Assembly: GCA_902801295.1 (NCBI GenBank)
Contig: CADCHN010000032.1
Coordinates: 1 to 33,897, forward strand
DNA: 33,897 nt
Source: Oscillospiraceae bacterium
GTDB lineage: Bacteria > Bacillota > Clostridia > Oscillospirales > Oscillospiraceae
Reading direction: 5' to 3'
Shown here: piece by piece, positions 5,301 through 21,946 of the stretch
Position numbering within the stretch: position 1 is the stretch's first letter
How the letters are laid out: every line of letters begins with the position of its first letter
Made by a program: the position numbers and the translations under genes
The notes under the pieces: generated by a model
What the model was told of the DNA's origin: nothing
Seen by the model: the letters and a program-made list of their open reading frames with translations, nothing else
The model's database searches: none

Positions 5301-5341
5301 GTAAGTACCTGAAAAATGGTTCATAAACAAGGAGGAAGTTT

Positions 5342-7948: not shown

Positions 7949-7964
7949 TCCCAAACATAAAAAA

Positions 7965-7994: not shown

Positions 7995-8004
7995 GTGTCT
8001 GTTG

Positions 8005-8961: not shown

Positions 8962-9822
8962 TCAGCCTTTGACCGCGCCGCTGGTCATGCCGCTGATGAT
9001 CTGCTCCTGGAACAGGATGTAGCCCAGGATGGACGGCACAATGGAGATCACGATGGCGGCGTACATCGAGACATAGTCGGTCGAAAACTGGTTGGTGAAG
9101 TATCGGATGCCGACCTGGATCGTCCGCAGCTTTTCAGACGATACGATCAGGTTGGCGAAGACGAACTCGTTCCAGCAGGTGAGGAACTCGAAGGTGGCGG
9201 CCGTGACGATGCCCGTGCGGCTGAGCGGCAGGATGATATGGAAGAAGCGCCCGTAGAAGCCGCAGCCGTCGATGTAGGCGGCCTCCTCCAGATCCATCGG
9301 GATGGAGTCCATCAGACCGCGGATCAGGAAGGTGGACATCGGGATACCGATGGCACAGTAGAGCAGAACCATGCCGCCGTAGGTGTTGTACAGGCCCAGC
9401 TTGTTGATGATGACGAAGTAGGGCACCATCAGCGCGTTGAGCGGCACCAGAATGCCCGCGGTGAAGAGCGTGTAGATCCGCTCGCGCCCGTTGAAGCGGA
9501 AGCGGGAGATGCAGTAAGCGCTCATGCTGGCCACGATCACGTTGAACACGGTTGCCAGCAGACCCACAAACACGGAGTTGAGCAGCATCCGCCCGAGACC
9601 CGCCACCGACAGGGCGTTTGCGTAGTTTTGCCACTGGGGCACGGCGGGGAGGGCGAAGGGGGAGAGCGCCAGAAATTCAAAGTTGGTTTTCAGCGAGGAG
9701 ATCGTCAGCCAGATCAGCGGGAACAGCGTATAGGCCGCAAAGAAAAGGATCAGGAACCAGCGCAGGATCCCGAGAACGATCTCTTTGGGGGAGAGCTTGT
9801 GATGAACGCGACTTTCTGTCAT
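8962..9822 (-). CDS. Carbohydrate ABC transporter permease, MalG/UgpE type
   Basis: This 286-residue inner-membrane protein is the second permease of a sugar importer. It has about six hydrophobic segments and the cytoplasmic EAA loop (EEAAYIDGCGFYGRFFHIILPL region, near residues 175-195) that docks onto the ATPase. Its ATG overlaps the stop of the partner permease by four bases. No ATP-binding subunit is encoded in the window, so a shared MsmK-like ATPase elsewhere is expected. The operon context points to sulfoquinovose or sulfoquinovosyl glycerol as cargo, which is an inference. Confidence 0.9.
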   Translation of the reverse strand: MTESRVHHKLSPKEIVLGILRWFLILFFAAYTLFPLIWLTISSLKTNFEFLALSPFALPAVPQWQNYANALSVAGLGRMLLNSVFVGLLATVFNVIVASMSAYCISRFRFNGRERIYTLFTAGILVPLNALMVPYFVIINKLGLYNTYGGMVLLYCAIGIPMSTFLIRGLMDSIPMDLEEAAYIDGCGFYGRFFHIILPLSRTGIVTAATFEFLTCWNEFVFANLIVSSEKLRTIQVGIRYFTNQFSTDYVSMYAAIVISIVPSILGYILFQEQIISGMTSGAVKG

Positions 9823-10730
9823 TTCACTGCCCTCCTCATTTTCTTCTGTGCCCGGACTTCATCGTTGCCGATGTTGAACAGCGCACGGATGCAGACAATG
9901 AAGATCACGCCCACGATAATCAAAATCACCGCGGATGCGCTGGCCATGCCGTAGTTGGTATCCTGCAGCTTTTTATACATATACAGCACCATGGTGCTGG
10001 TGCGGTTGGCCGGGCCGCCGTTGGTGAGCATGTAGACCTGCTCGAACTGCCGCAGGCCGAGAACGCTTGCCAGCGTGACGCAGGTGAGCAGGGAGGTGCG
10101 CTTGATCAGGGGAATGGTGATATAGATGGCCTGCTGAAAATCGGAGGCGCCGTCAATGGTGGCGGCCTCATAGTAGGAGCTGTCAATGGTGGTGATATCC
10201 GCCATCATAATGACCATGTAGTATCCCACATAGAACACCCAGTAGATCAGCACTGCCGGGAATGCCGTGTCTACGGTTCCCAGCCAGTCCCTTGCCAGGT
10301 CGCCGAGGCCGATGGAGCGCAGCAGACCGTTGAGCAGGCCGGTATCGGCGTTGTAAATGGCCCGCCAGAGGGTAGCCAGCGCGATGCCGGAAATCACCTG
10401 GGGGAAGAAATAGACCGTGCGGAAAAACTTCCAGCCCGCGGGCTTCCGGGAGAGGATGATCGCCATGACCATGGCAAGCGGCACCTGGATAAAGCCGGCG
10501 ACCAGCGCCCAGATGACGTTGTTGGTCACCGAACGGACGAAAGCCTTATCCTTGAACAGCTTGGCAAAGTTCTGAATATCGGTGAATGTTGCGGTAGAAA
10601 TGCCGTTCCATTTCAGAACGCTGACCACGACCACATAAATCACCGGAATCACGAAAAATACCAGCATGATAATCAGTGCTGGCGCCATAAACGCGGCGAG
10701 GGCGCTTCGGTCGGAGCGCGTCGGTTTCAA
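9819..10730 (-). CDS. Carbohydrate ABC transporter permease, MalF/UgpA type
   Basis: This 303-residue membrane protein is the first permease of the importer. It shows an N-terminal transmembrane segment (ALIIMLVFFVIPVIYVVVVS), further membrane spans and the EAA motif (YYEAATIDGASDFQQAIYI). It overlaps the next permease gene by ATGA. A hairpin separates it from the upstream binding-protein gene, a common arrangement giving more binding protein than permease. Confidence 0.9.
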   Translation of the reverse strand: MKPTRSDRSALAAFMAPALIIMLVFFVIPVIYVVVVSVLKWNGISTATFTDIQNFAKLFKDKAFVRSVTNNVIWALVAGFIQVPLAMVMAIILSRKPAGWKFFRTVYFFPQVISGIALATLWRAIYNADTGLLNGLLRSIGLGDLARDWLGTVDTAFPAVLIYWVFYVGYYMVIMMADITTIDSSYYEAATIDGASDFQQAIYITIPLIKRTSLLTCVTLASVLGLRQFEQVYMLTNGGPANRTSTMVLYMYKKLQDTNYGMASASAVILIIVGVIFIVCIRALFNIGNDEVRAQKKMRRAVK

Positions 10731-10760
10731 GCTGCCACCTCCTTGAGAGAATTACGCAAC

Positions 10761-10785
10761 AGGGTGCGGCATAGTACCGCACCCT
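10761..10785 (-). promoter_or_regulatory. Intercistronic hairpin between binding-protein and permease genes
   Basis: A perfect 9-bp inverted repeat (10761-10769 and 10777-10785) with a 7-base loop lies between the two genes. There is no T-run after it on the minus strand, so it is more likely a 3'-end protecting or processing hairpin than a full terminator. Confidence 0.55.
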
Positions 10786-10807
10786 GAGCATTGGCTTGTT
10801 GTTAAAA

Positions 10808-12127
10808 TCAGGCGGCGTTGTCGATGGCGGTCTGGAGCATATCGACAAAGCCCTGCTCGTCCACTTCACCCAGGACCAGAGCGGAAACTGCGGCGGGGAA
10901 CTCGGTGGAGAAGGCGGTGGGGAAGGCACCGTTCACGTGCAGGATGGTGAACTCGGCGCTGTTGGCAACCTCGGTGACCTTCTGGGAGATCACATTGGTG
11001 TCGGGGGACGGGGTGTACTTCACGAAGAACATGGCGCCGGAAGAGAGGGCCAGCTCAGAGACGTGGGCGGGATCGGTGACATACTGGAGGAACTTCACAA
11101 CAGCGGCTTCCTTCGCAGGATCATCCTGCTTGGCAGCGGCCAGGAAGCCCTGGACGGTGGTCACAAGACCGCCGACACCCTTGCCCTCGCCGTAGCCGGG
11201 GTTGACAGCAACTTCGCAGACGTCGGCCAGCAGCTTGCCGTCGACAGCGTTGTCTTCTTTGTAGAAGTTGGCGATCCACCAGGGGCCGTTGAGGTAGATG
11301 GCAGTGTCGCGGGCGATGAAGTGGCCGTTCACGTCACCGGCGGTGGCGGAAACAGCACCGTCGAAGGTGTAGTTGTACATTTCCTTGAGGACCTTGGCAG
11401 CCTCGACAAAGGCGGGATCGCTGAGACCGTTGGCGTAGACGTCCTTGCCGCCGATGGCTTCAACAATCAGGGAGTACCACAGCATGGAGGACCAGGCGTT
11501 GTCGCCGGCCATCTGGCCCATGACGTTGTAGCCGGCGGCCTTCACGTCTTCAGCCATCTGGAAGAACTCGTCATAGGTGGCGGGGAAGTGATCCCAGCCG
11601 GCAGCGGCCAGAATCTCGGTGTTGTAGATGGGGGTGAACACAGCGCTCTCAAAGGGCAGGATGCTGACCTTGCCATCCACGCTCCAGGCGTCAAAGGCGC
11701 CGTCGGTGAAGGTGTCGCCCCAGCCGGCTTCCAGATAAGGAGTCAGATCCATGAACTTGCCGGACTCGGCATAAGCCTTGATATCGAAGGTGGTGTCCAG
11801 AATGCAGATGTCGGGAGCGGAACCGGTGGTGATGGTGGTGCGGATCTTGTCGCGGTAGGCCTGGTAGTCGGTCTGCTCTTCGACGACGACCTTGATAGCA
11901 CCGGCGTTCTCTTCATTGAACGCCTCAATCAGCTTGCCCATGTACTCGGCCTTGGAGTCGGTGCCGACCCAGATGCTGGGGAAGTTGATGACGATCTCGC
12001 CGGCGGGCTGCTCGGCGGCGGGCTGTTCGGCAGCGGGCTGCTCGCCGGCGGGAGCGGTCTGCTGGCCGCAGGCGGCCAGAGCAAATACCATAACCATGGC
12101 CAGAAGCAATGCGATGAGTTTCTTCAT
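10808..12127 (-). CDS. Sugar ABC transporter substrate-binding lipoprotein
   Basis: This 439-residue lipoprotein captures sugar outside the membrane. It starts with a signal peptide and lipobox (A-L-A-A-C, Cys20), a short PAAEQ linker and a binding fold of the ABC sugar-binding family 1 type. Family features include NFPSIWVGTD near the start, GSAPDICILD and a central Trp-rich block (NGPWWIANF). GGAGAAACGAC precedes the ATG. The gene starts a leftward operon with the two permeases and has its own promoter and operator-like palindrome. Its location beside sulfoquinovosidase and sulfoglycolysis genes suggests a sulfoquinovose-type ligand, but sulfonate-binding residues cannot be read from sequence alone. 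Confidence 0.9.
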   Translation of the reverse strand: MKKLIALLLAMVMVFALAACGQQTAPAGEQPAAEQPAAEQPAGEIVINFPSIWVGTDSKAEYMGKLIEAFNEENAGAIKVVVEEQTDYQAYRDKIRTTITTGSAPDICILDTTFDIKAYAESGKFMDLTPYLEAGWGDTFTDGAFDAWSVDGKVSILPFESAVFTPIYNTEILAAAGWDHFPATYDEFFQMAEDVKAAGYNVMGQMAGDNAWSSMLWYSLIVEAIGGKDVYANGLSDPAFVEAAKVLKEMYNYTFDGAVSATAGDVNGHFIARDTAIYLNGPWWIANFYKEDNAVDGKLLADVCEVAVNPGYGEGKGVGGLVTTVQGFLAAAKQDDPAKEAAVVKFLQYVTDPAHVSELALSSGAMFFVKYTPSPDTNVISQKVTEVANSAEFTILHVNGAFPTAFSTEFPAAVSALVLGEVDEQGFVDMLQTAIDNAA

Positions 12128-12143
12128 GTCGTTTCTCCTTTTT

Positions 12144-12164
12144 AATTAACTTCGTTAATCAACT
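12144..12164. promoter_or_regulatory. Operator-like palindrome A in the importer leader
   Basis: Arms TTAATTAAC and GTTAATCAA flank a TTC centre and match each other with one mismatch. The site lies about 25-45 bases downstream of the predicted start of the importer mRNA, where a bound repressor would block it. Related AT-rich motifs occur at 16388-16401 and 16494-16503. The ROK regulator encoded at 20723 is the most likely ligand, by inference. Confidence 0.55.
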
Positions 12165-12195
12165 TGCCACAAAAAAAGATGTGACTACTGGACTT

Positions 12196-12224
12196 ATTAT
12201 AGGGAAATGTTTCAAATTTGTAAA
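12196..12224 (-). promoter_or_regulatory. Promoter of the ABC importer operon
   Basis: The minus strand shows TTTACA (12219-12224) and a perfect TATAAT (12196-12201) with a 17-base spacer, giving a leader of about 60 bases that contains palindrome A. Confidence 0.7.
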
Positions 12225-12286
12225 GAAGATTAGCTCCGTGATTCTGTAGATTTTCAAGAGACGTTTTTAGTGAAAGTGACGATGAA

Positions 12287-12320
12287 AAGAGGCAGAGCGC
12301 CGAAAAACGCTCTGCCTCTT
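12287..12320 (-). terminator. Terminator of the isomerase / YesL / sulfoquinovosidase operon
   Basis: A perfect 13-bp hairpin with arms 12287-12299 and 12308-12320 follows the sulfoquinovosidase stop codon. On the minus strand it continues into a short T-run (TTTTCATC). Confidence 0.85.
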
Positions 12321-12332
12321 TGTCGAAATTGA

Positions 12333-14330
12333 TTATATTTCCTGCACCAGGCTGCGGAACACCTGACTCCAGCCCGATTCCTCCCGCCAGAATACCGGAG
12401 GCTGGCCGAGCGGGGAGGGGACGCTGACCTCGCCGCCGGAATAGCGTTTTCCGCTCCAGAGGTGAACCCAGCTGCCCTCCGGCAGCCAGAGCGTCCGGCT
12501 TTCCCCGCCGGGCTTGACCACCGGGGCAACCAGCACATCTCCGCCCAGCAGATAGCTGTAAAGCCGGTGATCGTAGGCGCGTGGCTCGTCGGGAGCGGCC
12601 AGAAACAGCGGGCGCATCACCGGCAGTCCGCGGCTGGCATTCTCCTCCACGCAATGCCGCAGATACGGCAGCAGCGCGTCGTGGATGCGTGTCAGCCGGG
12701 CCGCGGCGGCGATCAGCTCGTCGCTGTCGTACAGCTGCACGTTGCTGTCGGGGCGATTGCCCTCGTGGGTGCGCATGACCGGTGTGAAACAGGCAAATTC
12801 CAGCCAGCGCAGCAGCAGTTCTTTGTCCCGCTTCAGATGGAAGAGCGTCGTATAGCCGCCGATATCGCTGGTGTGGAGGCCAAAGCCGCTCATGCCCAGG
12901 CTCAGGGCCGCCGTGATGACCGAGGGCAGACCGTCGTCCTCCGACCAGTCCACGCATTGGTCGCCCGCCCAGGCGAGCGTGGAGTAACGCTGGCTGCCGG
13001 CGGCGCCGGCGCGCATGAAGAACACGCAGTTGCCCAGCATTCCGGCCTCTTCCACCGCTTCGCGGTTGCACTTGGCCCAGAGCATGGGCCAGGCGTTGTG
13101 CAGCTGCCTGCCGCTTCCGCCGCAGCAGACCGCGTCTGCCGGCAGATATTCGCCGAAATCCGCCATCCAGCCCCGGAAGCCCAGGCCGATCAGGTTGGTT
13201 TTGATAACGTTTTTATACCAGGCAAAGGCCTCCGGCATGGTCAGATCCACCACGCCGCAGTCATACTCGCCAAAATCGAACAGGTACTCGCTGCCGTCGG
13301 CTCTCCGGACGAAGTAGCCCTTCTCCCGCGCCTCGGCAAACAGCACGCCGCCCTCTACCAGATAGGGATTGATATAGCCCATCCAGGCGGTGCCCGGATC
13401 CTCGGCAATCACGCGGTCCAGGCCCGGGTACAGATCCCGGTTCCAGCGCCAGTCCCATTGCAGGCGCTTTCCGAAGGAGGTGACGCGGCGTCCCTCCCAG
13501 TCCTGGATCCAGACGGCGGAGATATCCATGCCGCCGTCTTTGCAGCGCTTTTCCAGCGCCGCTGCGCGCTCAGTGCCGCCCTGCACGCCCAGCCACAAGC
13601 CCTTCATGGCCCAGTCCGGCAGCATCGGCTGGCGGCCGAGACAGCCCGTCAGCTTTTCAAGCAGCGCCTCATAGCTGTCCGCCGCGCCGAAAACGAAGCG
13701 GGCTTCATGACTCCATACGGCGATCTCGTGATAGTCGCGCTCCCGCAGATCCAGCTCGGAGTACTCATAGTTTTCCAGATGGACAAACAGCAGGCGGGAG
13801 GAGACCAGCGTCGGCTGGGGGAAGAAGGTGGTGTGATAGTCCCCGCCGCTGCCGTCGAGTGCATCGGCAAGCCGGGTGACCTCCGTCAGCTTGTTGCGGC
13901 CCACACCCTGCTCCCGGGTCCAGATCGGCCAGAGCCGACCGCGCAGATCCAGCGCGGAAAACTGCTCGCCGCCGCCGGTCAGGTGTTCCTCCGGCTCCGC
14001 CGCCAGACGGATCCACAGGCGGTTGACAGTCGGGTCAAGCCCGCGCAGCGTGAGAAACAGAAGGCCGTCCCGCTCTTCCGCCTCCAGGCACAGCTCCCCC
14101 TTCAGATCGGGGTGAGTAAAACGCAGACTGTTCTTTTCCGCGGCCGTCAGACGCAGGGCCAGGCGCTCGTCGATCCGGTCGCGGATCTCAAAATTGCCCC
14201 GGTACATCCGGATATCCTCGTTGCCGCGGCCGCAAAACAGAGCGGGGGCCTGAGAGCTATGCTGGAGCAGGAGCCGGCCGTCCAGCCAGATACTGACGGC
14301 GGCGCTTCCCTCGGGACGAATTTCAAACAT
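12333..14330 (-). CDS. yihQ: Sulfoquinovosidase (GH31, YihQ type)
   Basis: This 665-residue cytoplasmic GH31 enzyme should release sulfoquinovose from sulfoquinovosyl glycerol or lipid glycosides. The nucleophile lies in GWMADFGEYLP (Asp391) and the acid/base in WAGDQCVDWS (Asp457). The three residues that read the sulfonate in E. coli YihQ (Arg301, Trp304, Tyr508) are matched by Arg289 and Trp292 in FGKRLQWDW and Tyr493 in DIGGYTT. The blocks AVWIQDWEG and RTHEGNRPDSN are also YihQ-like, and length is close to the E. coli enzyme. I chose the ATG at 14330, not the one ten codons upstream, because AAGGAG lies 6 bases before it. It is the last gene of an operon with the isomerase and a YesL-like protein. 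An ordinary alpha-glucosidase is unlikely. Confidence 0.93.
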   Translation of the reverse strand: MFEIRPEGSAAVSIWLDGRLLLQHSSQAPALFCGRGNEDIRMYRGNFEIRDRIDERLALRLTAAEKNSLRFTHPDLKGELCLEAEERDGLLFLTLRGLDPTVNRLWIRLAAEPEEHLTGGGEQFSALDLRGRLWPIWTREQGVGRNKLTEVTRLADALDGSGGDYHTTFFPQPTLVSSRLLFVHLENYEYSELDLRERDYHEIAVWSHEARFVFGAADSYEALLEKLTGCLGRQPMLPDWAMKGLWLGVQGGTERAAALEKRCKDGGMDISAVWIQDWEGRRVTSFGKRLQWDWRWNRDLYPGLDRVIAEDPGTAWMGYINPYLVEGGVLFAEAREKGYFVRRADGSEYLFDFGEYDCGVVDLTMPEAFAWYKNVIKTNLIGLGFRGWMADFGEYLPADAVCCGGSGRQLHNAWPMLWAKCNREAVEEAGMLGNCVFFMRAGAAGSQRYSTLAWAGDQCVDWSEDDGLPSVITAALSLGMSGFGLHTSDIGGYTTLFHLKRDKELLLRWLEFACFTPVMRTHEGNRPDSNVQLYDSDELIAAAARLTRIHDALLPYLRHCVEENASRGLPVMRPLFLAAPDEPRAYDHRLYSYLLGGDVLVAPVVKPGGESRTLWLPEGSWVHLWSGKRYSGGEVSVPSPLGQPPVFWREESGWSQVFRSLVQEI

Positions 14331-14363
14331 GGCAATCTCCTTATTCTTGATGCTGAACACATC

Positions 14364-14987
14364 TTATTCATTATACCAGGCGTCCCCGTTTTCGGCCTCC
14401 TGATCGGCCGTGTAGACGCGAAACACCGGCTCGATGGTCAGCGACATCAGCAGGGCAAACACGCCGGGCAGCAGCGGCAGGATCTGGGGCAGCATCCAGC
14501 TGATGCCCAGAAACAGCGCCAGCTCGCCCGTCAGGATCAGGCTCCTTCCCAGATGGCGCGCCGCCAGATAGCAGACAAATTTCAGGCTGCCGCCGAAGGA
14601 ATTGGAAAAGCGGGAAATGTAGGCGAACATCCAGGGGAAGGTGAGCAGGGCGGGAAGCGCCAGGATCCCGCTGAACGCGGAGAGCGGGCCGCCGACAGAC
14701 AGCCCCATGTGCCGGTAGGCGTAGAAATCAAACGCCGCCAGGCACATCACGGCCAGATACAGCAGCCACATGGGAAAGCTCTGCCGGAAATTCCGCCGGA
14801 AGCCTGCAAAAAACACCTTTGACAGATGGCCGCGCTCATGCCGGATCCGCTTGACCGTCGTGTAATACAGCGCCGTGGTGGCCGGCCCCAGCGTCAGGAT
14901 GGGGAGCGAGCACAGCAGCCACAGGATGCCGGCGTAGAGAATATCCGTGACGGCGGTCAGCGCGGTTTTCAGCTTGGATTCTTTCAT
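14364..14987 (-). CDS. YesL-like membrane protein (DUF624)
   Basis: This 207-residue integral membrane protein has about five hydrophobic segments. Its opening, with GILWLLCSLPILTLGPATTALYY near residues 18-40, matches the DUF624/YesL family. YesL-like genes often sit beside sugar ABC importers in Firmicutes, and their biochemical role is not established. It lies between the isomerase gene (40 bases upstream) and the sulfoquinovosidase gene (33 bases downstream) and should be cotranscribed with both. It may assist the importer. Confidence 0.85.
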   Translation of the reverse strand: MKESKLKTALTAVTDILYAGILWLLCSLPILTLGPATTALYYTTVKRIRHERGHLSKVFFAGFRRNFRQSFPMWLLYLAVMCLAAFDFYAYRHMGLSVGGPLSAFSGILALPALLTFPWMFAYISRFSNSFGGSLKFVCYLAARHLGRSLILTGELALFLGISWMLPQILPLLPGVFALLMSLTIEPVFRVYTADQEAENGDAWYNE

Positions 14988-15027
14988 AAGCCGTCCTCTC
15001 CCGGATCGCGTTGTGCGGAAGGTCGCT

Positions 15028-16377
15028 TCAGTATTTGCAGACCTCGAAGCCGAACATGTCGGCCAGAGCCTCCAGCGTCTGGGCGTGACGGCCCTTCATC
15101 ACCACGAAGTGGGGCTCGAAGCCGTCCAGCACGCTCTGCTCCACCACACCGCGGCTGTCAGAGTCGGTTTTCACGACGATCGAGGTGCCAATGAACTGCC
15201 GGGGCTTGTCCAGCGCCTCGCCCTCGGTGATGAAGAAGCGGAAGCTGCCGTCCGGCTCGCGGCCGATGCGGAAGACCGTTGCCTCGGGGAAGGCCTCGCA
15301 GCCGAAGTTCATGGCCGGGCCGATCTTGCGGTTGGGATGTACGCCGATCTCGGCGCCGGTGTCCTTCCGGGCCAGACCGCAGGCTGCCGCGCCGCAGTGC
15401 CAGAAGGTGACGGTGTTTTCCCCCTCGTCCAGGGAGACGGGATCGCCGAAGAAGACCGGCTCGCCGCTCAGCTGCATGCCGATCCACATGGACAGGGCGC
15501 CGTAGATGTCCGCCTCGCAGGCAGCGGCCACGCCGTCGTCATTGAGGAGGCTCAGCACCGTGCAGACCGGGGTGCCGAAGGCGGTGAAGAAGTCCGGCCA
15601 GCAGCGGGAGGCGAGGGCGCCGATGCCGTGGCTGCGGACGTACTCGGTATAGGCCTTGTAGAGCCGTGCGTGATCCAGGCGGTTGTGCTCCGGGGTCTTG
15701 TCCAACCCGCAGGTCATGCAGGCGGTCTTGCTGAGATAGTCGGCGCAGTCTTCGTCGGTGTAGCCCTTCGCCATGTCGATGAGCTCGCGCGCCTCGATGG
15801 CCTCCAGCTCCACGCCAAAGGTGTTCATCAGCTCGCTGTCCAGCGCGCGGCCGAAGCCGAAGCCCTGGGGGGTGTGGCCCACGGCGGCCATTTTCAGGCT
15901 GCGCATGGCGCACTTGATCCTGGCGGCGGCGGTGCTGGCGCGGACGGCACGGATCACCGCTTCCTCCTCCGGCGCGCCGAAGGCGTAGGCGAAGGGACGG
16001 TAGTCAAAGGCGCGCAGGGTGTTGGCGGCGGAATAGGCGCCGGTCAGGGAGTTGAGACGCAGGCGGCCTCCGTCGATGACAGGCTCGCGCAGCGTCCACA
16101 GCAGCACCGGGCAGTTGAAGCGGCGCAGCACCTCGGACATGTAGGCGGCGTTGGCAAAGGTCAGGTTCTGGAACACGATCAGATCGGGCTGCAGCCCCTC
16201 CAGATAGGCGCGGAGCTTGTCAAGCGAGAGCAGCATCTCCTCAGGGCAGACGAAGCTGTCGTCCACGCTCCTGAGCATCTTCACGCTGCGCTCAAACTGA
16301 TCCTGTGCGCTTTCCAGATGGAAGGTTGGCACACCCACAGGAACATAAACAGGGGTAAAGGTTTTGGTAGTCATCAT
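15028..16377 (-). CDS. sqvD: Sulfoquinovose isomerase (L-fucose/arabinose isomerase family, SqvD type)
   Basis: This 449-residue protein belongs to the metal-dependent L-fucose/L-arabinose isomerase superfamily. It shows the block AACEADIYGALSM (Glu288), VFFGDPV (Asp312) and TFWHCGAAACG (His337), which fit the Glu-Asp-His metal site. In sulfo-transaldolase and sulfo-transketolase loci a protein of this family converts sulfoquinovose to 6-deoxy-6-sulfofructose, and its place next to the sulfoquinovosidase and split transketolase supports that role. Two ATG codons start the gene in tandem; the second (16374) has better spacing from GGGAGG. It is first in its operon and its promoter is back to back with that of the transketolase genes. 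A true fucose or arabinose isomerase is less likely, since no kinase or aldolase for those sugars is present. Confidence 0.85.
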   Translation of the reverse strand: MMTTKTFTPVYVPVGVPTFHLESAQDQFERSVKMLRSVDDSFVCPEEMLLSLDKLRAYLEGLQPDLIVFQNLTFANAAYMSEVLRRFNCPVLLWTLREPVIDGGRLRLNSLTGAYSAANTLRAFDYRPFAYAFGAPEEEAVIRAVRASTAAARIKCAMRSLKMAAVGHTPQGFGFGRALDSELMNTFGVELEAIEARELIDMAKGYTDEDCADYLSKTACMTCGLDKTPEHNRLDHARLYKAYTEYVRSHGIGALASRCWPDFFTAFGTPVCTVLSLLNDDGVAAACEADIYGALSMWIGMQLSGEPVFFGDPVSLDEGENTVTFWHCGAAACGLARKDTGAEIGVHPNRKIGPAMNFGCEAFPEATVFRIGREPDGSFRFFITEGEALDKPRQFIGTSIVVKTDSDSRGVVEQSVLDGFEPHFVVMKGRHAQTLEALADMFGFEVCKY

Positions 16378-16387
16378 ATATCCTCCC

Positions 16388-16401
16388 GTTAATTATTAAA
16401 C
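16388..16401. promoter_or_regulatory. Operator-like AT-rich motif B
   Basis: GTTAATTATTAAAC lies at about +4 to +17 of the leftward isomerase transcript. Read on the minus strand it contains AATTAACGGG, close to half of palindrome A and to motif C. It is a candidate site for the ROK regulator. Confidence 0.45.
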
Positions 16402-16411
16402 TTTGGAAACT

Positions 16412-16440
16412 ATCATAGACTTGCCGCCGCTTTCTGTCAA
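16412..16440 (-). promoter_or_regulatory. Promoter of the isomerase / sulfoquinovosidase operon
   Basis: The minus strand shows TTGACA (16435-16440) and TATGAT (16412-16417) with a 17-base spacer. Its -35 box forms one arm of the palindrome at 16435-16454, whose other arm is the -35 box of the opposite promoter. Confidence 0.8.
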
Positions 16441-16448
16441 CAAAAATG

Positions 16449-16477
16449 TTGACAAGCGCCGTGGATAGCGTTACACT
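16449..16477 (+). promoter_or_regulatory. Promoter of the sulfo-transketolase operon
   Basis: TTGACA (16449-16454) and TACACT (16472-16477) are spaced by 17 bases. The perfect inverted repeat TGTCAACA-AAAA-TGTTGACA (16435-16454) ties it to the opposite promoter, so polymerase or a regulator binding the centre would affect both operons. Confidence 0.8.
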
Positions 16478-16493
16478 GTGTTTGCTTAAACCC

Positions 16494-16503
16494 TTTAATT
16501 AAA
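16494..16503. promoter_or_regulatory. Operator-like AT-rich motif C
   Basis: The perfect palindrome TTTAATTAAA lies at about +10 of the rightward transcript, just before the ribosome site of the transketolase gene. It resembles the left arm of palindrome A (TTTAATTAAC). Confidence 0.45.
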
Positions 16504-16522
16504 TTGCAGGAGGATACTCGAA

Positions 16523-17350
16523 TTGGATCACAACATTAGAGAAATCTGCAAGGATATCCGCTGCGACATCATGACCACCATCGGTCATCTTGGCGTGGGG
16601 CATATCGGCGGCTGCCTCTCCCTGGTGGAGCTGCTGGCCGTGCTGTACTTTGAAGAGATGAACATCGACCCGCTTAACCCCAAAATGCCCGGCCGGGATC
16701 GCCTGGTCTGCTCCAAGGGTCACGCCGGTCCCGCGGTTTACGCCACCCTTGCCAACCGCGGCTATTTTTCCAAGGATGAGCTGCTCACCCTGAACCAGAG
16801 CGGCACGCATCTGCCCAGCCACTGCGACATGAATCTCACCACCGGCATCGACATGACCACCGGTTCTCTGGGCCAGGGCTTCAGCTGCGCCGTGGGCGTT
16901 GCGCTGGGTTCCAAGCTGGAAGGCGACGGCGCCACCGTCTATGCCATCATCGGCGACGGCGAGAGCCAGGAGGGCCAGATCTGGGAGGCCGCGATGTTTG
17001 CCGCCTCGAAGAAGCTGGATAACCTGATTGCCTTTACCGACTACAACAAGCTCCAGATCGACGGTACCGTGGAGCAGGTCAACGGCATTGCGCCGCTGGC
17101 GGAGAAATGGGCCGCCTTCGGCTGGAACGTGATCGACGTGGAGGACGGCAACGACGTGGAACAGGTGCAGGAAGCCCTGAAGCACGCCAAGCTCGGCCGC
17201 GGCAGCGAGAAGCCCACCATGGTGATCCTGAACACCAAGAAGGGCTGCGGCGTCAAGTGGATCGAGGATCTGGGCGCCGGCAACCATAACACCAACATCA
17301 GCGAGGAGCAGGCCAAGGCCGCCGTCGCCGAGATCAGAGGGGAGGCTTAA
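16523..17350 (+). CDS. sqwG: Transketolase N-terminal (thiamine diphosphate-binding) subunit, sulfo-transketolase
   Basis: This 275-residue protein is the first half of a split transketolase. It has the conserved histidines in GVGHIGG (His27) and SKGHAGP (His67) and the thiamine diphosphate motif from GDGESQEG (144) to DYNKLQIDG (173). The start codon is TTG, supported by AGGAGG 9 bases upstream. The second half follows after 3 bases. In the sulfo-transketolase pathway this enzyme moves two-carbon units from sulfofructose, and then from sulfoerythrulose, onto glyceraldehyde 3-phosphate, giving xylulose 5-phosphate and finally sulfoacetaldehyde. A role as the housekeeping split transketolase is possible, but the locus argues for the sulfosugar role. 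Confidence 0.87.
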   Translation: MDHNIREICKDIRCDIMTTIGHLGVGHIGGCLSLVELLAVLYFEEMNIDPLNPKMPGRDRLVCSKGHAGPAVYATLANRGYFSKDELLTLNQSGTHLPSHCDMNLTTGIDMTTGSLGQGFSCAVGVALGSKLEGDGATVYAIIGDGESQEGQIWEAAMFAASKKLDNLIAFTDYNKLQIDGTVEQVNGIAPLAEKWAAFGWNVIDVEDGNDVEQVQEALKHAKLGRGSEKPTMVILNTKKGCGVKWIEDLGAGNHNTNISEEQAKAAVAEIRGEA

Positions 17351-17353
17351 ATC

Positions 17354-18224
17354 ATGGAAATGAGAGCTGTTTACGCCCAGTGCCTGGCGGAAATGATGGA
17401 GCAGGACAAGCATGTCGTCGTCCTGGATGCCGACCTTGCCAAGGCCAGTGGTACCCGCAACCTGTATGAGCGCTTCCCCGGCCAGATGTTCGACTGCGGC
17501 GTTGCCGAGCAGAACATGGCCTCCATCGCCGCCGGCCTGTCCAGCTACGGCTTCAAGCCCTGGATCGAGAGCTTCACGCCCTTCGCCACCCGCCGCATCT
17601 GCGACCAGATCGCCATTTCGATCTCCTATGCCAAGCAGAACGTGAAGGTCGTCGGCACCGACCCCGGCATCTCCGCCGAGCTCAACGGCGGCACCCACAT
17701 GAGCATGGAGGACATCGGCGCTGCGCGCCGCGATGCCGGTGCTCAACGACTACAAGGGCTGCGTGTACATGCGCCTGTTCCGCAAGGTTCAGCCCGTGAT
17801 CTTCCCCGAGGATTACAAGTTTGACCTCTTCAAGGCCGACCTTCTGAAGGAAGGCAAGGACCTGAGCATCTTCGTCTCCGGCATGATGACCAAGGACGCG
17901 CTGGACGCGGCCGAGCTTCTGAAGGCCGAGGGCATTGACGCCGAGGTCATCAACGTCCACACCATCAAGCCCATCGACCGCGAGACCGTGATCGCCTCCG
18001 CCCGCAAGACCGGCGCTGTGCTGACCGTGGAGAACCACAACGTCATCGGCGGCCTCCATTCCGCCGTGCTCGAGGCGCTGGCTCAGGAGAAGATCCCCGC
18101 CTGCGCCGTCGGCGTTCAGGATCGCTTCGGCGAGGTGGGCAAGCTGCCCTACCTGCGCGAGGCGATGGGCCTCACGGTAGAGAATATCGTGGAGACCGCG
18201 AAGAAGGCAGTCAGCCTGAAATAA
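17354..18224 (+). pseudogene. sqwH: Transketolase C-terminal subunit with a frameshift, sulfo-transketolase
   Basis: Two overlapping frames together make one transketolase C-terminal subunit of about 290 residues. The first (17354-17824) carries VAEQNMASIAAG with the catalytic Glu52 and is normal up to THMSMEDIG, after which it turns into nonsense. The second frame carries the rest, from about ALRAAMPVLNDYKG, and has its first ATG at 17733. The switch is a +1 shift (one base gained or two lost) near 17718-17722, inside a GC-alternating stretch prone to slippage. The downstream ATG has no ribosome site. Codon use and protein similarity on both sides look undamaged, so the lesion is either recent or a sequencing error. 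If real, the sulfo-transketolase would be inactive. Confidence 0.85.
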
Positions 18225-18234
18225 CAATCACCAA

Positions 18235-18264
18235 GGGCGGCCCCGTGCGGTCGCCCGCTTTTTT
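18235..18264 (+). terminator. Weak internal terminator or attenuator
   Basis: GGGCG (18235-18239) pairs with CGCCC (18252-18256), with a further internal CC/GG pair, and six T residues follow at 18259-18264. It lies between the transketolase and the isomerase gene with only 15 bases to the next start, so partial read-through is likely. Confidence 0.5.
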
Positions 18265-18279
18265 GAAAGGAGTAACATT

Positions 18280-18825
18280 ATGAAAATTGCAATCGGAAGC
18301 GACAAGTCCGGTTTTTCCGCCAAAGAGGCCATCAAGGCCTATCTGACCGAAGCAGGCGTTGAGTTCGACGACCTTGGCACTGTGGATCTGGAGCATGTGC
18401 ACCCCTACTATGAGGTTGCCAACACCGTGGCTCCCCTGGTGCAGAAGGGCGAGTATGACCGTGCGGTGCTGATCTGCGGCACCGGCGCCGGCATGAGCGT
18501 CGTGTCCAACAAGTTCAAGGGCGTCTACGCCGTGGCCTGCGAGGGCGTGTACTCTGCCAAGATGGCCCGCGCCATCAACAACGCCAACATCCTCTGCATG
18601 GGCGGCTGGATCGTCGGCCCCGAGATGGCCGTGGAGATGACCAAGACCTTCCTGGCCACCGAGTGGTGCCGTCTATGGCAAATGAATTTGTGTACGCCCA
18701 GCCGGTCAAAATCTGGTTCGGCGAGGGTAAATTTCAGGAGCTGGGCTCCGTGCTGGACGAGCTGGGGATCGGCAGGGCCGTGCTGGTCTGCGGCCGGCAC
18801 TTCGCGCCGCAGGCGCAGGCCATGA
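18280..18825 (+). CDS. sqwI: RpiB/LacAB-family isomerase (probable sulfoerythrose isomerase) with run-on C-terminus
   Basis: Residues 1-129 are a RpiB/LacAB-type sugar isomerase, with the active-site Cys66 in LICGTGAGMSVVSNK and the block INNANILCMGG. In the sulfo-transketolase pathway such an enzyme converts 4-deoxy-4-sulfoerythrose to sulfoerythrulose for the second transketolase cut. Position 99, usually His in RpiB (HNDANVL-like), is Ile here. The family would normally end about 20 residues after FLATE. Instead the frame runs into the next gene, out of its frame, and ends in 50 low-complexity Arg/Ser/Trp/Gly residues. This points to a small deletion near 18664-18674 that removed the natural end and stop codon. 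GAAAGGAG precedes the ATG. Confidence 0.8.
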   Translation: MKIAIGSDKSGFSAKEAIKAYLTEAGVEFDDLGTVDLEHVHPYYEVANTVAPLVQKGEYDRAVLICGTGAGMSVVSNKFKGVYAVACEGVYSAKMARAINNANILCMGGWIVGPEMAVEMTKTFLATEWCRLWQMNLCTPSRSKSGSARVNFRSWAPCWTSWGSAGPCWSAAGTSRRRRRP

Positions 18826-19775
18826 TGGACGCCGACAGCCGCTTTGCCGCCATCTTCTCCCGGGTGGAGCAGAACCCGCAGCTCTCGGGCATTGAAGAGA
18901 CCGTTCGCCTCTGCCGCGAAACGGCTGCCGAGGCCGTCATCGGCATCGGCGGCGGCAGCGCCATGGATACCGCCAAGTTTGCGGCCGCGGTTGCTCCCAA
19001 CGACGGCGACGCCATCGACTACTACGAAGGCCGCCGCGCCTTCAACGCCGGGAGCCGCCTGGCGATTCTGGCGGTGCCCACCACCGCCGGCACCGGCAGC
19101 GAGGTGACCCAGGTCTCCGTGGTGAGCCACGACAAAGAGAAAAAGACCATCAACAATCCCGCGTTCATGCCCACTGCCGCGATCGTCGACCCGTGCCTCA
19201 GCCTGGGCGTTCCGCCCCGGACCACCATGTGCACCGGCCTGGACGCCATGGCCCACGCCCTGGAGGGCTACTGGAGCAAAAACCACCAGCCCATCCCCGA
19301 CCTGACGGCGATTCAGGCTGTGCGTCTGGTGCTGGAGAATCTGGAGACGGCTTACCGCCACGGCGAGGACCGGGAGGCTCGCGGCAATATGGCGCTGGCA
19401 GCGCTCCTGGGCGGCCTGAGCTTCGCTCTGCCCAAGACCGCCGCCAGTCATGCCTGCAGCTATCCGCTCAGCGAGGACTACCATCTGCCCCACGGGGAGG
19501 CCTGCGCCTTTACGCTGGACAGCCTGGTGAAAATCAACGCCGACGAGCGGCTGGAGTATCTCTGCCGCGCCGTGGGTCTGAAGGATACCGACGAGCTTTC
19601 CGCGCGCATCCGCGCCTTCAAGGAGATGGCGGGTCTGCGCACGAGACTCGGCGATCTGGGCGAGGTGGATCTGGACAAGCTCTGCCGGGACTGCGCCAGG
19701 CATCCCCTGATGAACAACAACCCCGTGAAGCTGGATGAAAAGGCTCTGCGGGAGATGTTTGAAGCCCTGCGATGA
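18675..19775 (+). CDS. Iron-containing alcohol dehydrogenase, probable sulfoacetaldehyde reductase
   Basis: This 366-residue group III alcohol dehydrogenase has the NAD-binding GIGGGSAMDTAK, PTTAGTGSEVTQ and the metal ligands in GLDAMAHALEGYW, SHACSYPLSEDYHLPHGEAC. In known sulfoglycolysis and taurine fermentation loci, enzymes of this family reduce sulfoacetaldehyde to isethionate, which recycles NADH. The ATG at 18675 was chosen because MANEFVYAQPVKIWFGEG looks like a natural N-terminus. It has no ribosome site, and a GTG at 18663 is an alternative in frame. The missing site agrees with the deletion inferred at the end of the preceding isomerase gene. It overlaps the exporter gene by ATGA. 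Another aldehyde substrate cannot be excluded from sequence. Confidence 0.87.
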   Translation: MANEFVYAQPVKIWFGEGKFQELGSVLDELGIGRAVLVCGRHFAPQAQAMMDADSRFAAIFSRVEQNPQLSGIEETVRLCRETAAEAVIGIGGGSAMDTAKFAAAVAPNDGDAIDYYEGRRAFNAGSRLAILAVPTTAGTGSEVTQVSVVSHDKEKKTINNPAFMPTAAIVDPCLSLGVPPRTTMCTGLDAMAHALEGYWSKNHQPIPDLTAIQAVRLVLENLETAYRHGEDREARGNMALAALLGGLSFALPKTAASHACSYPLSEDYHLPHGEACAFTLDSLVKINADERLEYLCRAVGLKDTDELSARIRAFKEMAGLRTRLGDLGEVDLDKLCRDCARHPLMNNNPVKLDEKALREMFEALR

Positions 19776-20689
19776 AGCACGCCAACCGAAACGCCGTGGG
19801 GATGATCGGCGGGATGGTGCTCGCCTGGTCTATCTACTATGCGGTCAGCAAGGTAGTGGTGAACGCAACCGGCTCGGCACTCCTGGCGGGCTTTCTGCTG
19901 CGTACGGCGGCGCTGGTGTTCCTCACGGCCCAGCTTCTGCTGGACGGCAGCTTTACGCGGCTGTTCCACCAGGGGAAGGCCATGCGGATCCTGCTGATGA
20001 TCGGCGTGTTCGGCTTCCTGCTGGATCTGTTTGCCAACCTCGGCTACGCCGGCGGCAGCCTCAGCACCGGTACGGCTCTTTTAAAGACCGACGTGCTGAT
20101 GGTGAACCTGGTGTCGGTGATCCTGTATAAGAAAAAGCTCTATGCCTCCGACTGGCTGGGCACCTTCGTGATGCTGCTGGGCGTACTGCTGGTGCTGGGC
20201 GTGGATTTCGGCAGCATGAGCCTGAATCTCTACGATCTGTTTTTCATCCTCAGCGCCATGTGCGTGACCGCCAACGCCTTTATCATCAAGCGCGCCCAGG
20301 ACAAGTACCATGAGGACGCGGATATGATCTCCTACTATAATAACTTTGTGGTGCTGCTGCTCTTCGGCACAACCGCCGCCGCAACGGGGGATCTGGGAGG
20401 CTTTGACTGGGCGAGTCTCGGCAAGCTCTGGTGGCTGGTGCTGCTGGGCGGCCTGGCTCAGACGGGGATCTACTTCTTCTACTACCGCAACCTGAAAAAG
20501 TACGAGGTCTGGGTGGTGAAGCTCTGCCTGCTGCTGATGCCGGTCGTCAGCTGCTTCATCGGGGTCTTCTTCCTGAGCGAAGAACTCACCGCGAAAAAGA
20601 TGCTGGGCATCCTGATCGTGCTGGCGGGCGCGGCCGTGCTGCTGCTGCGCAGCCGCATCCACCATGAGGCCGGGACCGGTCAGAATTGA
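19772..20689 (+). CDS. EamA/DMT-superfamily transporter, probable isethionate exporter
   Basis: This 305-residue protein has about ten hydrophobic segments in two repeats, typical of the drug/metabolite transporter superfamily. The blocks ALLKTDVLMVNLVSVIL and FFLSEELTAKKMLGILIVLAGA are at the positions expected in each EamA half. It is translationally coupled to the dehydrogenase gene by a 4-base overlap. Since the pathway ends in a sulfonate that this bacterium shows no gene here to break down, export of isethionate is the simplest role. That role is inferred from position only. Confidence 0.83.
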   Translation: MKHANRNAVGMIGGMVLAWSIYYAVSKVVVNATGSALLAGFLLRTAALVFLTAQLLLDGSFTRLFHQGKAMRILLMIGVFGFLLDLFANLGYAGGSLSTGTALLKTDVLMVNLVSVILYKKKLYASDWLGTFVMLLGVLLVLGVDFGSMSLNLYDLFFILSAMCVTANAFIIKRAQDKYHEDADMISYYNNFVVLLLFGTTAAATGDLGGFDWASLGKLWWLVLLGGLAQTGIYFFYYRNLKKYEVWVVKLCLLLMPVVSCFIGVFFLSEELTAKKMLGILIVLAGAAVLLLRSRIHHEAGTGQN

Positions 20690-20722
20690 GGCATCTATTT
20701 CAAAAGGAAAGGAGAATGTGAT

Positions 20723-21946
20723 ATGCCGTTCGAAGGCGACAATATGATGGGCGTCAAGCGCAACAACCGGAGTGCGGCGCTGCGCATTCTCCACAAAAAA
20801 GGCGGCATGTCCCGCAAACGCCTGGCCGAGGCCATCAAGCTCACGCCCGCCGCCATCACAAAAATTGTGGCCGAGATGATGAACGACGGCCTGCTGCGGG
20901 AGGGCAAGATCCTTCCGGGCGACGGCGCCGGACGTCGGGAGATCCTGATTGAACTCGATGCCTCCGCCGGGGTGGCGCTGGGGGTGCTGATTAACCTGCG
21001 GCAGACCATTGTTTCCGCGGTGCGCCTGGACGGCACGGTACTGTTCTCGGAGGAAATCGCCATCGAGCCCCGAGCGGACGCGGACAGTACGACAGCCATG
21101 CTGGCGCGGCGACTGCTTGAGCTGACCGAGGCGCACCATGTCCCCCGGGAACGGATCGTGGGTCTCGGGCTGGCGCTGCGAGGCATCACCTCCGCGGACG
21201 GACGCCGCGTGAGCAACAGCTTCGGCTCGCTGCGGCAGAAGAATTATCCGATATGCGATCGCTTTGAGGCGCTCACCGGTATTCCCTGTGTTCTTGACAA
21301 CAATGTCCGCGCCCTGTTTGCCGCACAGATGTTTCTGGATGATGACGACGGGCGGGGGTCGCAGTTCTTTCTCCGCTGCGAGTACGGCATCGGCGCCGCT
21401 CTTTCGATGAACGACCGCATCTGGCACGGCGTCACGGAGCAATGCGCCGAGATCGGGCACATCCCGGTCATCAAACGCGGCGGCAAGCCCTGCTCCTGCG
21501 GGAAGAGCGGCTGCTTGGAAACCATCGCCTCTCCCGCTGCCATTCGCGAGGATGCGCTGGCGCTGCTGTCGCCGGAGCGGACGCCTGTTCTCTGGAAGCT
21601 CAGTCAGGAGCGGGGGAGGGAAAATCTGACGGTGGACGATATCCTCAGCGCCGCCCGCAATGGAGACAACGGCGTGGCGACGGTGGTGGATCGGGCGGTC
21701 TCCGCCCTGGGAAGCGCCCTGAAATCCGTCATTTACCTTGTTGACCCCGGGAAAATCGTCCTCTATGGCGGTATTTTCGAGAATCCGTACTATCTGTCCC
21801 GGCTTCTGAGCGAGATGCGGGAAGGGGTAGACAGCGGCCACGTCACCGTGGTGGAGAAAAGCCGCTATAATCACCGGCTGGAGGATAAAGCGGCCGGCCT
21901 TCTGGCAGTCCAGCGCTTTTTTGAAAACGGCGGGATCCGCCTCTGA
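20723..21946 (+). CDS. ROK-family transcriptional regulator
   Basis: This 407-residue protein has an N-terminal winged helix-turn-helix (about residues 12-60, NRSAALRILHKKGGMSRKRL onward) and a C-terminal ROK sugar-kinase-like domain. The ROK zinc motif is complete in GHIPVIKRGGKPCSCGKSGCLE. An AAAGGAG site lies 8 bases before the ATG. Repressors of this class (XylR, NagC) respond to sugars or sugar phosphates. It is the last gene of the rightward operon and the only regulator in the locus, so it probably controls the importer, isomerase and transketolase promoters through motifs A, B and C. The effector would be sulfoquinovose or an early intermediate. Confidence 0.9.
   Translation: MPFEGDNMMGVKRNNRSAALRILHKKGGMSRKRLAEAIKLTPAAITKIVAEMMNDGLLREGKILPGDGAGRREILIELDASAGVALGVLINLRQTIVSAVRLDGTVLFSEEIAIEPRADADSTTAMLARRLLELTEAHHVPRERIVGLGLALRGITSADGRRVSNSFGSLRQKNYPICDRFEALTGIPCVLDNNVRALFAAQMFLDDDDGRGSQFFLRCEYGIGAALSMNDRIWHGVTEQCAEIGHIPVIKRGGKPCSCGKSGCLETIASPAAIREDALALLSPERTPVLWKLSQERGRENLTVDDILSAARNGDNGVATVVDRAVSALGSALKSVIYLVDPGKIVLYGGIFENPYYLSRLLSEMREGVDSGHVTVVEKSRYNHRLEDKAAGLLAVQRFFENGGIRL

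What the first reader, a model, noticed from the sequence alone, without database searches (positions are those of the whole stretch)
8962..21946. Complete sulfo-transketolase type sulfoquinovose locus in a GC-rich Clostridia relative
Seen directly: GH31 protein with YihQ-type sulfonate residues (Arg289, Trp292, Tyr493), fucose-isomerase-family protein, split transketolase, RpiB/LacAB-like isomerase, group III iron alcohol dehydrogenase, EamA transporter, ROK regulator, sugar ABC importer. Established: the sulfo-transketolase pathway uses this enzyme set to turn sulfoquinovose into two xylulose 5-phosphate plus sulfoacetaldehyde, reduced to isethionate. Inference: this bacterium imports and ferments plant sulfoquinovosides and releases isethionate, feeding sulfide-forming gut bacteria. 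The ABC importer and YesL-like protein in the locus add to the described designs.
Basis: partly seen in the sequence, partly recalled or inferred. Interest (0 to 1): 0.93.

Follow-up and report, generated by a model that had tools for sequence, protein, structure and literature searches.

The report
Sulfoquinovose gene cluster, two genes interrupted
This bacterial genome, likely from a gut, carries the published set of genes predicted to turn the plant sulfur sugar sulfoquinovose into isethionate, an ordinary new member of a known pathway, except that two of its core genes are interrupted in this assembly.

Summary
The gene set is real. Window 8962-21946 holds an ABC importer (binding protein, two permeases), a DUF624/YesL protein, a YihQ-type GH31, an SQ-isomerase-family protein, transketolase genes, a RpiB/LacAB-type isomerase, an iron alcohol dehydrogenase closest in the PDB to the sulfoacetaldehyde reductase BkTauF, an EamA exporter and a ROK regulator. 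This is the sulfo-transketolase layout; sqwG, sqwH and sqwI lie beside SqvD in 60 of 60 sufficiently long named relatives. The pathway, its rumen hosts and ABC importers in such clusters are already published (PMC13219744, PMC11659671), so it is a new member of a known kind.

One correction: the cluster is not complete as written. sqwH lacks 53 bases and falls into two frames, and 71 bases are missing across the sqwI end. All 72 testable named relatives are intact at sqwH. An intact public protein is identical over the second half. I judge local assembly error somewhat likelier than a true strain lesion; reads would decide.

One lead beyond the finding: relatives, and this genome on another contig, carry a second GH31 class that passes the YihQ model but has Gln and Phe where YihQ has the sulfonate-contacting Arg and Tyr. 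It largely replaces YihQ among related genomes, so it may be an unrecognised sulfoquinovosidase type.

The parts
8962..9822 (-). ABC importer permease A
   Evidence: PF00528, 65.9 bits
9819..10730 (-). ABC importer permease B
   Evidence: PF00528, 49.8 bits
10808..12127 (-). sugar-binding protein of the ABC importer
12142..12149 (+). TTAATTAA, operator-like site ahead of the importer operon (role inferred)
   Evidence: 2 in window, 0.14 expected; TTAATTA/TAATTAA just upstream of the binding-protein gene in 13 of 16 relatives
12333..14360 (-). YihQ-type GH31 sulfoquinovosidase, predicted
   Evidence: NF007746 883.6 bits over cut-off 553; Q260, Q286, R299, W302, Y503, D401, D467
14364..14987 (-). 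DUF624/YesL-like membrane protein, role unknown
   Evidence: PF04854 64 bits
15028..16377 (-). SQ isomerase SqvD/SftI, predicted
   Evidence: NF048012 sulfoquinovose isomerase E 3e-113, residues 10-447; Fucose_iso_C weak
16389..16395 (+). TTAATTA in the divergent promoter region, near sqvD (role inferred)
   Evidence: sequence; motif in 19 of 76 sqwG-sqvD gaps against 1.05 expected
16495..16502 (+). TTAATTAA, operator-like site ahead of sqwG (role inferred)
16523..17350 (+). sqwG, transketolase N-terminal subunit
   Evidence: PF00456 161.9 bits
17354..17824 (+). sqwH first piece (pyrimidine-binding domain), reads out of frame after 17720
   Evidence: PF02779 88.6 bits
17720..17721 (.). junction where 53 bases present in relatives are missing (frame break)
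17733..18224 (+). sqwH second piece (C-terminal domain)
   Evidence: PF02780 100.8 bits; 163 of 163 residues identical to intact 307-aa P0010
18280..18671 (+). sqwI, RpiB/LacAB-type isomerase, 3' end missing
   Evidence: PF02502 144.6 bits; relatives 157-160 aa where not cut by a contig end, here about 130 codons then an out-of-frame tail to 18825
18671..18672 (.). junction where 71 bases present in relatives are missing
18675..19775 (+). sqwF, iron alcohol dehydrogenase, predicted sulfoacetaldehyde reductase
   Evidence: best PDB match 6jko (BkTauF) E 2.2e-80
19772..20689 (+). EamA exporter, predicted isethionate export
   Evidence: PF00892 87.8 bits; role inferred from position
20723..21946 (+). 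ROK-family regulator
   Evidence: PF00480 122.9 bits with HTH

Best explanation
Window 8962-21946 is a sulfo-transketolase type sulfoquinovose gene cluster that would feed plant sulfoquinovosides to fermentation and release isethionate, but in this assembly sqwH is frame-broken by 53 missing bases and sqwI is cut short by 71, so the copy as written is predicted not to run the pathway unless those gaps are assembly errors, which I think likelier than not. Inferred steps: the ABC importer brings in sulfoquinovosyl glycerol or a like glycoside; the YihQ-type GH31 frees sulfoquinovose (SQ); SqvD isomerises it to 6-deoxy-6-sulfofructose; SqwGH moves a two-carbon unit to glyceraldehyde 3-phosphate, giving xylulose 5-phosphate and sulfoerythrose; SqwI isomerises that; SqwGH takes a second two-carbon unit, leaving sulfoacetaldehyde; SqwF reduces it to isethionate, regenerating NAD+; the EamA protein exports it. 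The ROK protein likely controls the importer and core operons through a shared TTAATTA-type site. The reaction order is taken from published work on other bacteria (PMC11659671, PMC12890257; passages). Shown here: gene families, residues, gene order, conservation and the two gaps. Not shown: any activity.
For: Families at every position. GH31 is YihQ-type by model score and residues. SqvD matches the sulfoquinovose isomerase model. SqwF is closest in the PDB to BkTauF and keeps 5 of its 7 listed active-site residues; the other two (Q196 to His, F265 to Tyr) are changes that PMC6616044 reports in a number of natural homologs (residues read by eye). sqwG, sqwH and sqwI present in 60 of 60 named loci with at least 6.5 kb on that side; ABC + YesL + GH31 genes in 14 of 55 with at least 7 kb on the other. 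TTAATTA-type sites ahead of importer and core. No transaldolase, no PFL-family lyase found in the genome. For assembly error: an intact 307-aa homolog with an identical second half and 122 of 125 residues of the first half exists (P0010); the gaps lie just behind the stretches most shared with other species (25-mers at 17601-17700 shared with a mean of 7.8 loci and at 18501-18600 with 6.5, the two highest of 33 bins; the first sharing runs up to the junction, the second peak ends about 60 bases before it); the other genes of the cluster read through without a break.
Against: No activity was measured. SqvD is below the strict NCBIfam cut-off. For SqwF the best NCBIfam model is PsrA (211.8 against 423.7) and the sulfoacetaldehyde reductase model SarD scores 167.7 against 700, so no curated model names it. 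The binding protein is not specially close to the known SQ-binding protein, so the imported sugar is inferred from position only. Against assembly error: the genome is clean elsewhere where compared (over five blocks, 128.6 kb aligned to relative G060, this genome lacks no stretch of 15 bases or more, and G060 lacks two, of 18 and 34 bases; longer differences fall between the blocks and were not counted), and both gaps fall in the same pathway, as a true decay would. Contig ends of relatives are not enriched in the core: 13 of 26 within 2.4 kb of SqvD on the core side against 12 of 31 on the other (counted from the lists).
Confidence: 0.8

Rival explanations
1. The two gaps are real: this strain has lost the sulfo-transketolase core by small deletions while its importer and sulfoquinovosidase stay intact, so it is losing SQ use or uses only the glycerol part of SQ-glycerol.
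For: Two gaps within 1 kb, none of 15 bases or more in this genome in 128.6 kb compared elsewhere; at the upper 95% background rate, two or more in 6.9 kb has probability about 0.012. Parts of the cluster are lost in relatives too: permease remnants lie beside SqvD in G032 and L047, beside GH31 in L027 and beside a broken GH31 in L049.
Against: SqvD, SqwG, SqwF, EamA and ROK are intact, unlike a decaying operon. No other relative has a broken sqwH (72 of 72 testable named loci; 21 related genomes with a full-span match of 75% or more, plus 2 cut by contig edges). The gaps lie just behind the stretches most shared between species.
Confidence: 0.35
2. The transketolase here is a working three-piece enzyme, or sqwH is read through by programmed frameshifting.
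For: The second piece begins with an ATG at 17733 and overlaps the first.
Against: 53 bases are missing, not just a frame change; 72 of 72 testable named relatives have one frame.
Confidence: 0.02
3. The cluster handles a non-sulfonated sugar; GH31 and isomerase are ordinary alpha-glucosidase and ketose isomerase.
For: Pfam names are generic; the binding protein's nearest folds are chitin- and xylo-oligosaccharide binders.
Against: GH31 scores and sulfonate-pocket residues; SQ isomerase model; BkTauF-like reductase; the same set is the published sulfo-TK cluster (PMC13219744, PMC11659671).
Confidence: 0.03
4. SQ goes by another branch, such as a mixed transketolase/transaldolase route or oxidation of sulfoacetaldehyde to sulfoacetate.
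For: Mixed routes are published for Faecalicatena and Caproiciproducens (PMC11659671, PMC13219744).
Against: No transaldolase-family gene found in the genome; a reductase and not an acylating dehydrogenase sits in the cluster. The genome is 95.5% complete, so absence is not proof.
Confidence: 0.05

Closest known systems
Sulfo-transketolase pathway of Clostridium sp. MSTE9 (SqvD, SqwGH, SqwI, SqwF, SqwE), as described in PMC11659671 and PMC12890257 (passages)
   Same: Same kinds of enzyme: SQ isomerase, two-subunit transketolase, sugar isomerase SqwI, metal-dependent alcohol dehydrogenase, GH31, exporter
   Different: sqwH and sqwI interrupted in this assembly; EamA-type exporter; DUF624 protein; MSTE9 sequences were not compared here
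Rumen sulfo-transketolase clusters of Ca. Limivicinus, Caproiciproducens and Neosphaerochaeta (PMC13219744; abstract, sections 3, 14, 16 and search passages read)
   Same: Uncultured rumen bacteria, isethionate route; YihQ in Limivicinus; SmoFGH/SmoE transporter genes listed in the Fig. 4 legend
   Different: Whether the window's genus is Ca. Limivicinus was not established; figures were not visible
Faecalicatena sp. DSM22707 bifurcated pathway (PMC11659671, passages)
   Same: Sulfo-TK genes with an ABC importer next to an SQase gene
   Different: It also has transaldolases; none found in this genome
E. coli YihQ and E. rectale SftG (PDB 5aed, 6pnr)
   Same: Full-length GH31 with the same catalytic and sulfonate-site residues as YihQ
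   Different: Activity not tested
BkTauF sulfoacetaldehyde reductase (PDB 6jko, PMC6616044, passages)
   Same: Best PDB match, 5 of 7 listed active-site residues identical
   Different: Two positions carry His and Tyr, as in a number of natural homologs

Membership tests
Sulfo-transketolase SQ pathway (isethionate variant) | SQ isomerase SqvD | tested here: met
   NF048012 E 3e-113 over residues 10-447; below its strict cut-off (378.9 against 700)
Sulfo-transketolase SQ pathway (isethionate variant) | Two-subunit transketolase SqwG + SqwH, both intact | tested here: not met
   SqwG intact; SqwH in two frames with 53 bases missing. The rest of the set is present, so this is filed as an interrupted copy
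Sulfo-transketolase SQ pathway (isethionate variant) | SqwI, RpiB/LacAB-type isomerase | tested here: inconclusive
   Family met (PF02502) but the 3' end is missing: 157-160 aa in uncut relatives
Sulfo-transketolase SQ pathway (isethionate variant) | SqwF sulfoacetaldehyde reductase of the metal-dependent ADH family | tested here: met
   Best PDB match BkTauF with 5 of 7 active-site residues; no NCBIfam model reaches its cut-off
Sulfo-transketolase SQ pathway (isethionate variant) | Isethionate exporter | tested here: inconclusive
   EamA protein in the operon; substrate unknown
Sulfo-transketolase SQ pathway (isethionate variant) | Isethionate formed from SQ | not testable with these tools
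   Needs culture and metabolite measurement
YihQ GH31 sulfoquinovosidase | Score above the family cut-off and above other GH31 models | tested here: met
   883.6 against cut-off 553; next model 203.7
YihQ GH31 sulfoquinovosidase | Sulfonate-site residues Gln, Gln, Arg, Trp, Tyr (motif recalled) and catalytic Asp pair | tested here: met
   Q260, Q286, R299, W302, Y503, D401, D467
YihQ GH31 sulfoquinovosidase | Hydrolysis of alpha-sulfoquinovosides | not testable with these tools
   Needs enzyme assay
SmoF-type SQ-binding protein | Closer to SmoF than to other sugar-binding proteins | tested here: inconclusive
Sulfo-transaldolase pathway | SF transaldolase | tested here: not met
   No PF00923 match in the 95.5% complete genome

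The most novel reading that the evidence does not exclude
Sulfoquinovose users of this genus have two exchangeable cleavage enzymes, and the second is an unrecognised sulfoquinovosidase class inside GH31 that grips its substrate differently. It passes the YihQ model (589 to 631 bits in five tested; cut-off 553) but has Gln in place of the sulfonate-contacting Arg and Phe in place of the Tyr in 30 of 30 locus copies and in all 120 listed database relatives. It is found in 9 of 22 SqvD-carrying same-genus genomes and 0 of 14 others (9 of 25 against 0 of 11 if three genomes with SqwH only are moved over), and almost never beside YihQ (both 1, only the second class 8, only YihQ 12, neither 1; Fisher p 0.0002). 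The window's genome has both, the second on contig C42. Much of what is counted as rumen yihQ could then be this class, cleaving SQ glycosides through a new anion site or cleaving a related acidic lipid headgroup.
Probability: 0.35. Interest if true: 0.6.

Novelty: new member of a known kind. Interest (0 to 1): 0.36.

Why it matters
The cluster itself adds one more genome to a published route by which green-plant sulfolipid becomes isethionate, which other gut bacteria turn into hydrogen sulfide. The check matters because the copy was called complete and is not, as assembled. The altered-pocket GH31 class matters more if it holds: yihQ is used as a marker gene for sulfoquinovose degraders (PMC13219744), and a group that passes the YihQ model without its sulfonate-contacting Arg and Tyr would change what such counts mean, or reveal a second way to recognise sulfoquinovosides.

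Tried and rejected
Neutral alpha-glucosidase: rejected by scores and residues. Sulfo-transaldolase route, desulfonation by the same cell, and phosphoketolase use of xylulose 5-phosphate: no PF00923, PF02901 or PF03894 match in the genome. Three-subunit transketolase or programmed frameshift: no testable relative is split and 53 bases are missing. Contig ends as proof that the core assembles badly: no enrichment (13 of 26 on the core side, 12 of 31 on the other, within 2.4 kb of SqvD). A GTCAAC...GTTGAC palindrome in the window's sqvD-sqwG gap is not conserved (0 of 76 relatives). Fold comparison of the binding protein does not single out the SQ-binding protein: Foldseek's first 50 rows do not show it and VIA-align lists it 26th. 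Glucuronate genes beside the second GH31 class, which hinted at a glucuronidase, occur within the fetched stretch of 1 of 30 loci only (L064). Paper searches for the sulfonate-site residues found nothing useful (no paper; 104 papers, the five listed unrelated). No paper holds two of the terms YesL, DUF624 and sulfoquinovose. A first guess at a wider promoter pattern gave no match. Not done: comparison with MSTE9 protein sequences, read mapping, taxonomic placement beyond the relatives' titles.
Full report
What is there. On the minus strand: two permeases, a sugar-binding protein, GH31, DUF624/YesL, and a Fucose_iso_C protein (a weak match, 27.0 bits against a cut-off of 29.3). On the plus strand: transketolase N, transketolase pyrimidine and C domains, LacAB_rpiB, Fe-ADH, EamA and ROK. 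The two operons diverge from 16378-16522.

The glycosidase. It is YihQ-type by score: 758 bits to E. coli YihQ and 646 to 756 to the five other YihQ-like chains, against at most 193 for any other GH31 listed from the PDB; 883.6 against a cut-off of 553 on NF007746. Every residue of the sulfonate and catalytic set is present. The role of these residues is recalled from the YihQ literature, which is not held here. PMC11968277 (passages) says that E. rectale SftG, PDB 6pnr, is an active sulfoquinovosidase; what 8r56 is was not looked up.

The other enzymes. SqvD matches the NCBIfam sulfoquinovose isomerase along its length but below the strict cut-off, and has no significant PDB match. The Fe-ADH has BkTauF (6jko) as by far its best PDB match, 273.5 bits against 164 for the next. 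No NCBIfam model reaches its cut-off for it; the best is PsrA. Read by eye from the alignment, with positions, the seven BkTauF active-site positions given in PMC6616044 (D192, Q196, F252, T257, H261, F265, H275) are D190, H194, F250, T255, H259, Y263 and H273 here. The paper says that Q196 is His and F265 Tyr in a number of homologs.

Relatives. A scan of named genomes with SqvD gave 255 relatives, of which the best 80 were kept. Of their titles, 21 name a ruminant host or gut part and 36 more bear RUG labels (recalled to mean rumen genomes; my count by eye); the other 23 do not show a source. Of the 60 with at least 6.5 kb on the core side, 60 have sqwG, both halves of sqwH, and sqwI; 36 also have sqwF, the EamA gene and the ROK gene. 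Of the 55 with at least 7 kb on the other side, 14 have ABC + YesL + GH31 genes as the window has (order may differ), 1 has ABC + GH31 without YesL, 7 have a same-strand GH31 without the full ABC set, 23 have a GH31 elsewhere only, and 10 have none. The same kind of cluster in rumen bacteria is in print: PMC13219744 reports it for Caproiciproducens, Ca. Limivicinus (35.5% of 313 genomes) and Sphaerochaetaceae, with isethionate and sulfide measured in microcosms, and names SmoFGH and SmoE transporter genes in its Fig. 4 legend (section 16). PMC11659671 reports an ABC importer beside the SQase in Faecalicatena (passages). The importer is therefore not a new design. I found no paper joining YesL or DUF624 with sulfoquinovose.

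The two gaps. In the window, sqwH stops making sense after 17720 and resumes in another frame at 17733. Against L004 the window lacks 53 bases, and G032 (locus L124) gives the same 53. In one search, 83 rows had both halves; 80 keep one frame, 79 of them with a 57-base spacer and one, this genome's own housekeeping transketolase L103, with 48. The three that do not keep the frame are all the window itself (L002, L083, L104). 72 of the 80 are named loci (recounted); the rest are L103 and seven loci from related genomes, some of them repeats of L004 and L084. Between sqwI codon 128 and sqwF every relative with both genes has 79 or 82 bases, the window 11; this cuts sqwI from 157-160 aa to about 130 codons and an out-of-frame tail. 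Among 60 related genomes searched with an intact SqwH, 21 have a full-span copy of at least 75% identity, 2 are cut by contig edges, and only this genome shows two pieces.

Error or lesion. For error: the public protein P0010, intact at 307 aa, equals the window over all 163 residues of the second half and 122 of 125 of the first, and the gaps sit just behind the two 100-base bins (of 33) that share most 25-mers with other species' loci, where an assembly graph would branch; the sharing runs up to the first junction, and the second peak ends about 60 bases before its junction. Against: the genome is clean where compared elsewhere. In five blocks, 128.6 kb aligned to G060, it lacks no stretch of 15 bases or more, while G060 lacks two, of 18 and 34; longer differences between blocks were not counted. 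Two gaps in 6.9 kb is unlikely at the upper background rate (about 0.012). I put error at about 0.6. Either way the word 'complete' needs the reads.

Regulation. TTAATTAA occurs twice in the window (0.14 expected), ahead of the binding-protein gene and ahead of sqwG; TTAATTA lies near the sqvD start. In relatives TTAATTA or TAATTAA lies in 19 of 76 sqwG-sqvD gaps (1.05 expected) and just upstream of the binding-protein gene in 13 of 16. That ROK binds it is inference.

Central metabolism. The genome has a second, housekeeping transketolase (C1:125621) and a second RpiB, but no transaldolase, phosphoketolase or PFL-family match. Xylulose 5-phosphate would have to re-enter glycolysis without transaldolase; the route is unknown.

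The second GH31 class. Of 57 GH31 genes in the named loci that span the pocket, all 27 that are at least 45% identical to the window's enzyme keep QQRW-DD-Y, and all 30 below 45% read QQQW-DD-F. Twenty-five of these 30 loci also have a GPH-type symporter gene. They still pass the YihQ model (589 to 631 bits in five tested), and the one searched in the PDB matches below E 1e-60 only the same six YihQ-like chains. A protein search with it gave 3934 relatives at E up to 1e-80, and all 120 listed carry the same substitutions. In 36 same-genus genomes the class occurs in 9 of 22 with SqvD (at least 75% identity) and 0 of 14 without (Fisher p 0.006); three of the 14 (G002, G015, G026) have SqwH but no such SqvD, and moving them gives 9 of 25 against 0 of 11 (p 0.034). 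With YihQ it is nearly exclusive (both 1, class only 8, YihQ only 12, neither 1; p 0.0002). In these genomes the classes were assigned by identity to the query, not by reading the motif, and the genomes are related, so the p values are guides only. The window's genome has both (C42:2910-4880). PMC13219744 notes that some Ca. Limivicinus have two yihQ copies, and that 64% and 47.5% of rumen amplicon variants in its two libraries sit on a long branch with a Mariniplasma sequence; whether that branch is this class was not tested.

Verdict. A known pathway in a new genome, with an interrupted copy as assembled, and a lead on an altered GH31 class in its relatives.

Noticed in passing
L064:12886-14865 and 29 other named loci; G000:C42:2910-4880 (L154): Second GH31 class that passes the YihQ model but has Gln for Arg299 and Phe for Tyr503 of the window enzyme; often beside a GPH symporter; nearly exclusive with YihQ among SqvD-carrying genomes of the genus.
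   Followed up: partly
G032 (L084, L124), L027, L047, L049; in G032 matching window 8962-9226: 3' remnants of permease A lie beside SqvD (G032, L047), beside GH31 (L027) or beside a broken GH31 (L049), so the importer module seems to have been deleted more than once while the core stays.
   Followed up: partly
G000 whole genome: No transaldolase, phosphoketolase or PFL-family match found, so how xylulose 5-phosphate re-enters glycolysis is open.
   Followed up: no
window 27106-29697: Two neighbouring DUF6034 genes (469 and 202 aa) next to an ECF-like sigma factor gene.
   Followed up: no
window 5342-7948 and 5321-8008: Large open frames on both strands; only the plus-strand one has domains (4Fe-4S and pyridine-nucleotide oxidoreductase), so the 895-aa minus frame is likely spurious.
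   Followed up: no
L077: SqvD homolog (73%) with no sqwG found in the 5.3 kb before it, unlike the 60 longer loci.
   Followed up: no
G002, G015, G026: Same-genus genomes with a SqwH of 75% or more but no SqvD of 75% or more; contig gaps or another isomerase.
   Followed up: no
P0122-P0124: SqwI homologs annotated at 197 aa with a 39-aa N-terminal addition, probably a wrong start.
   Followed up: no
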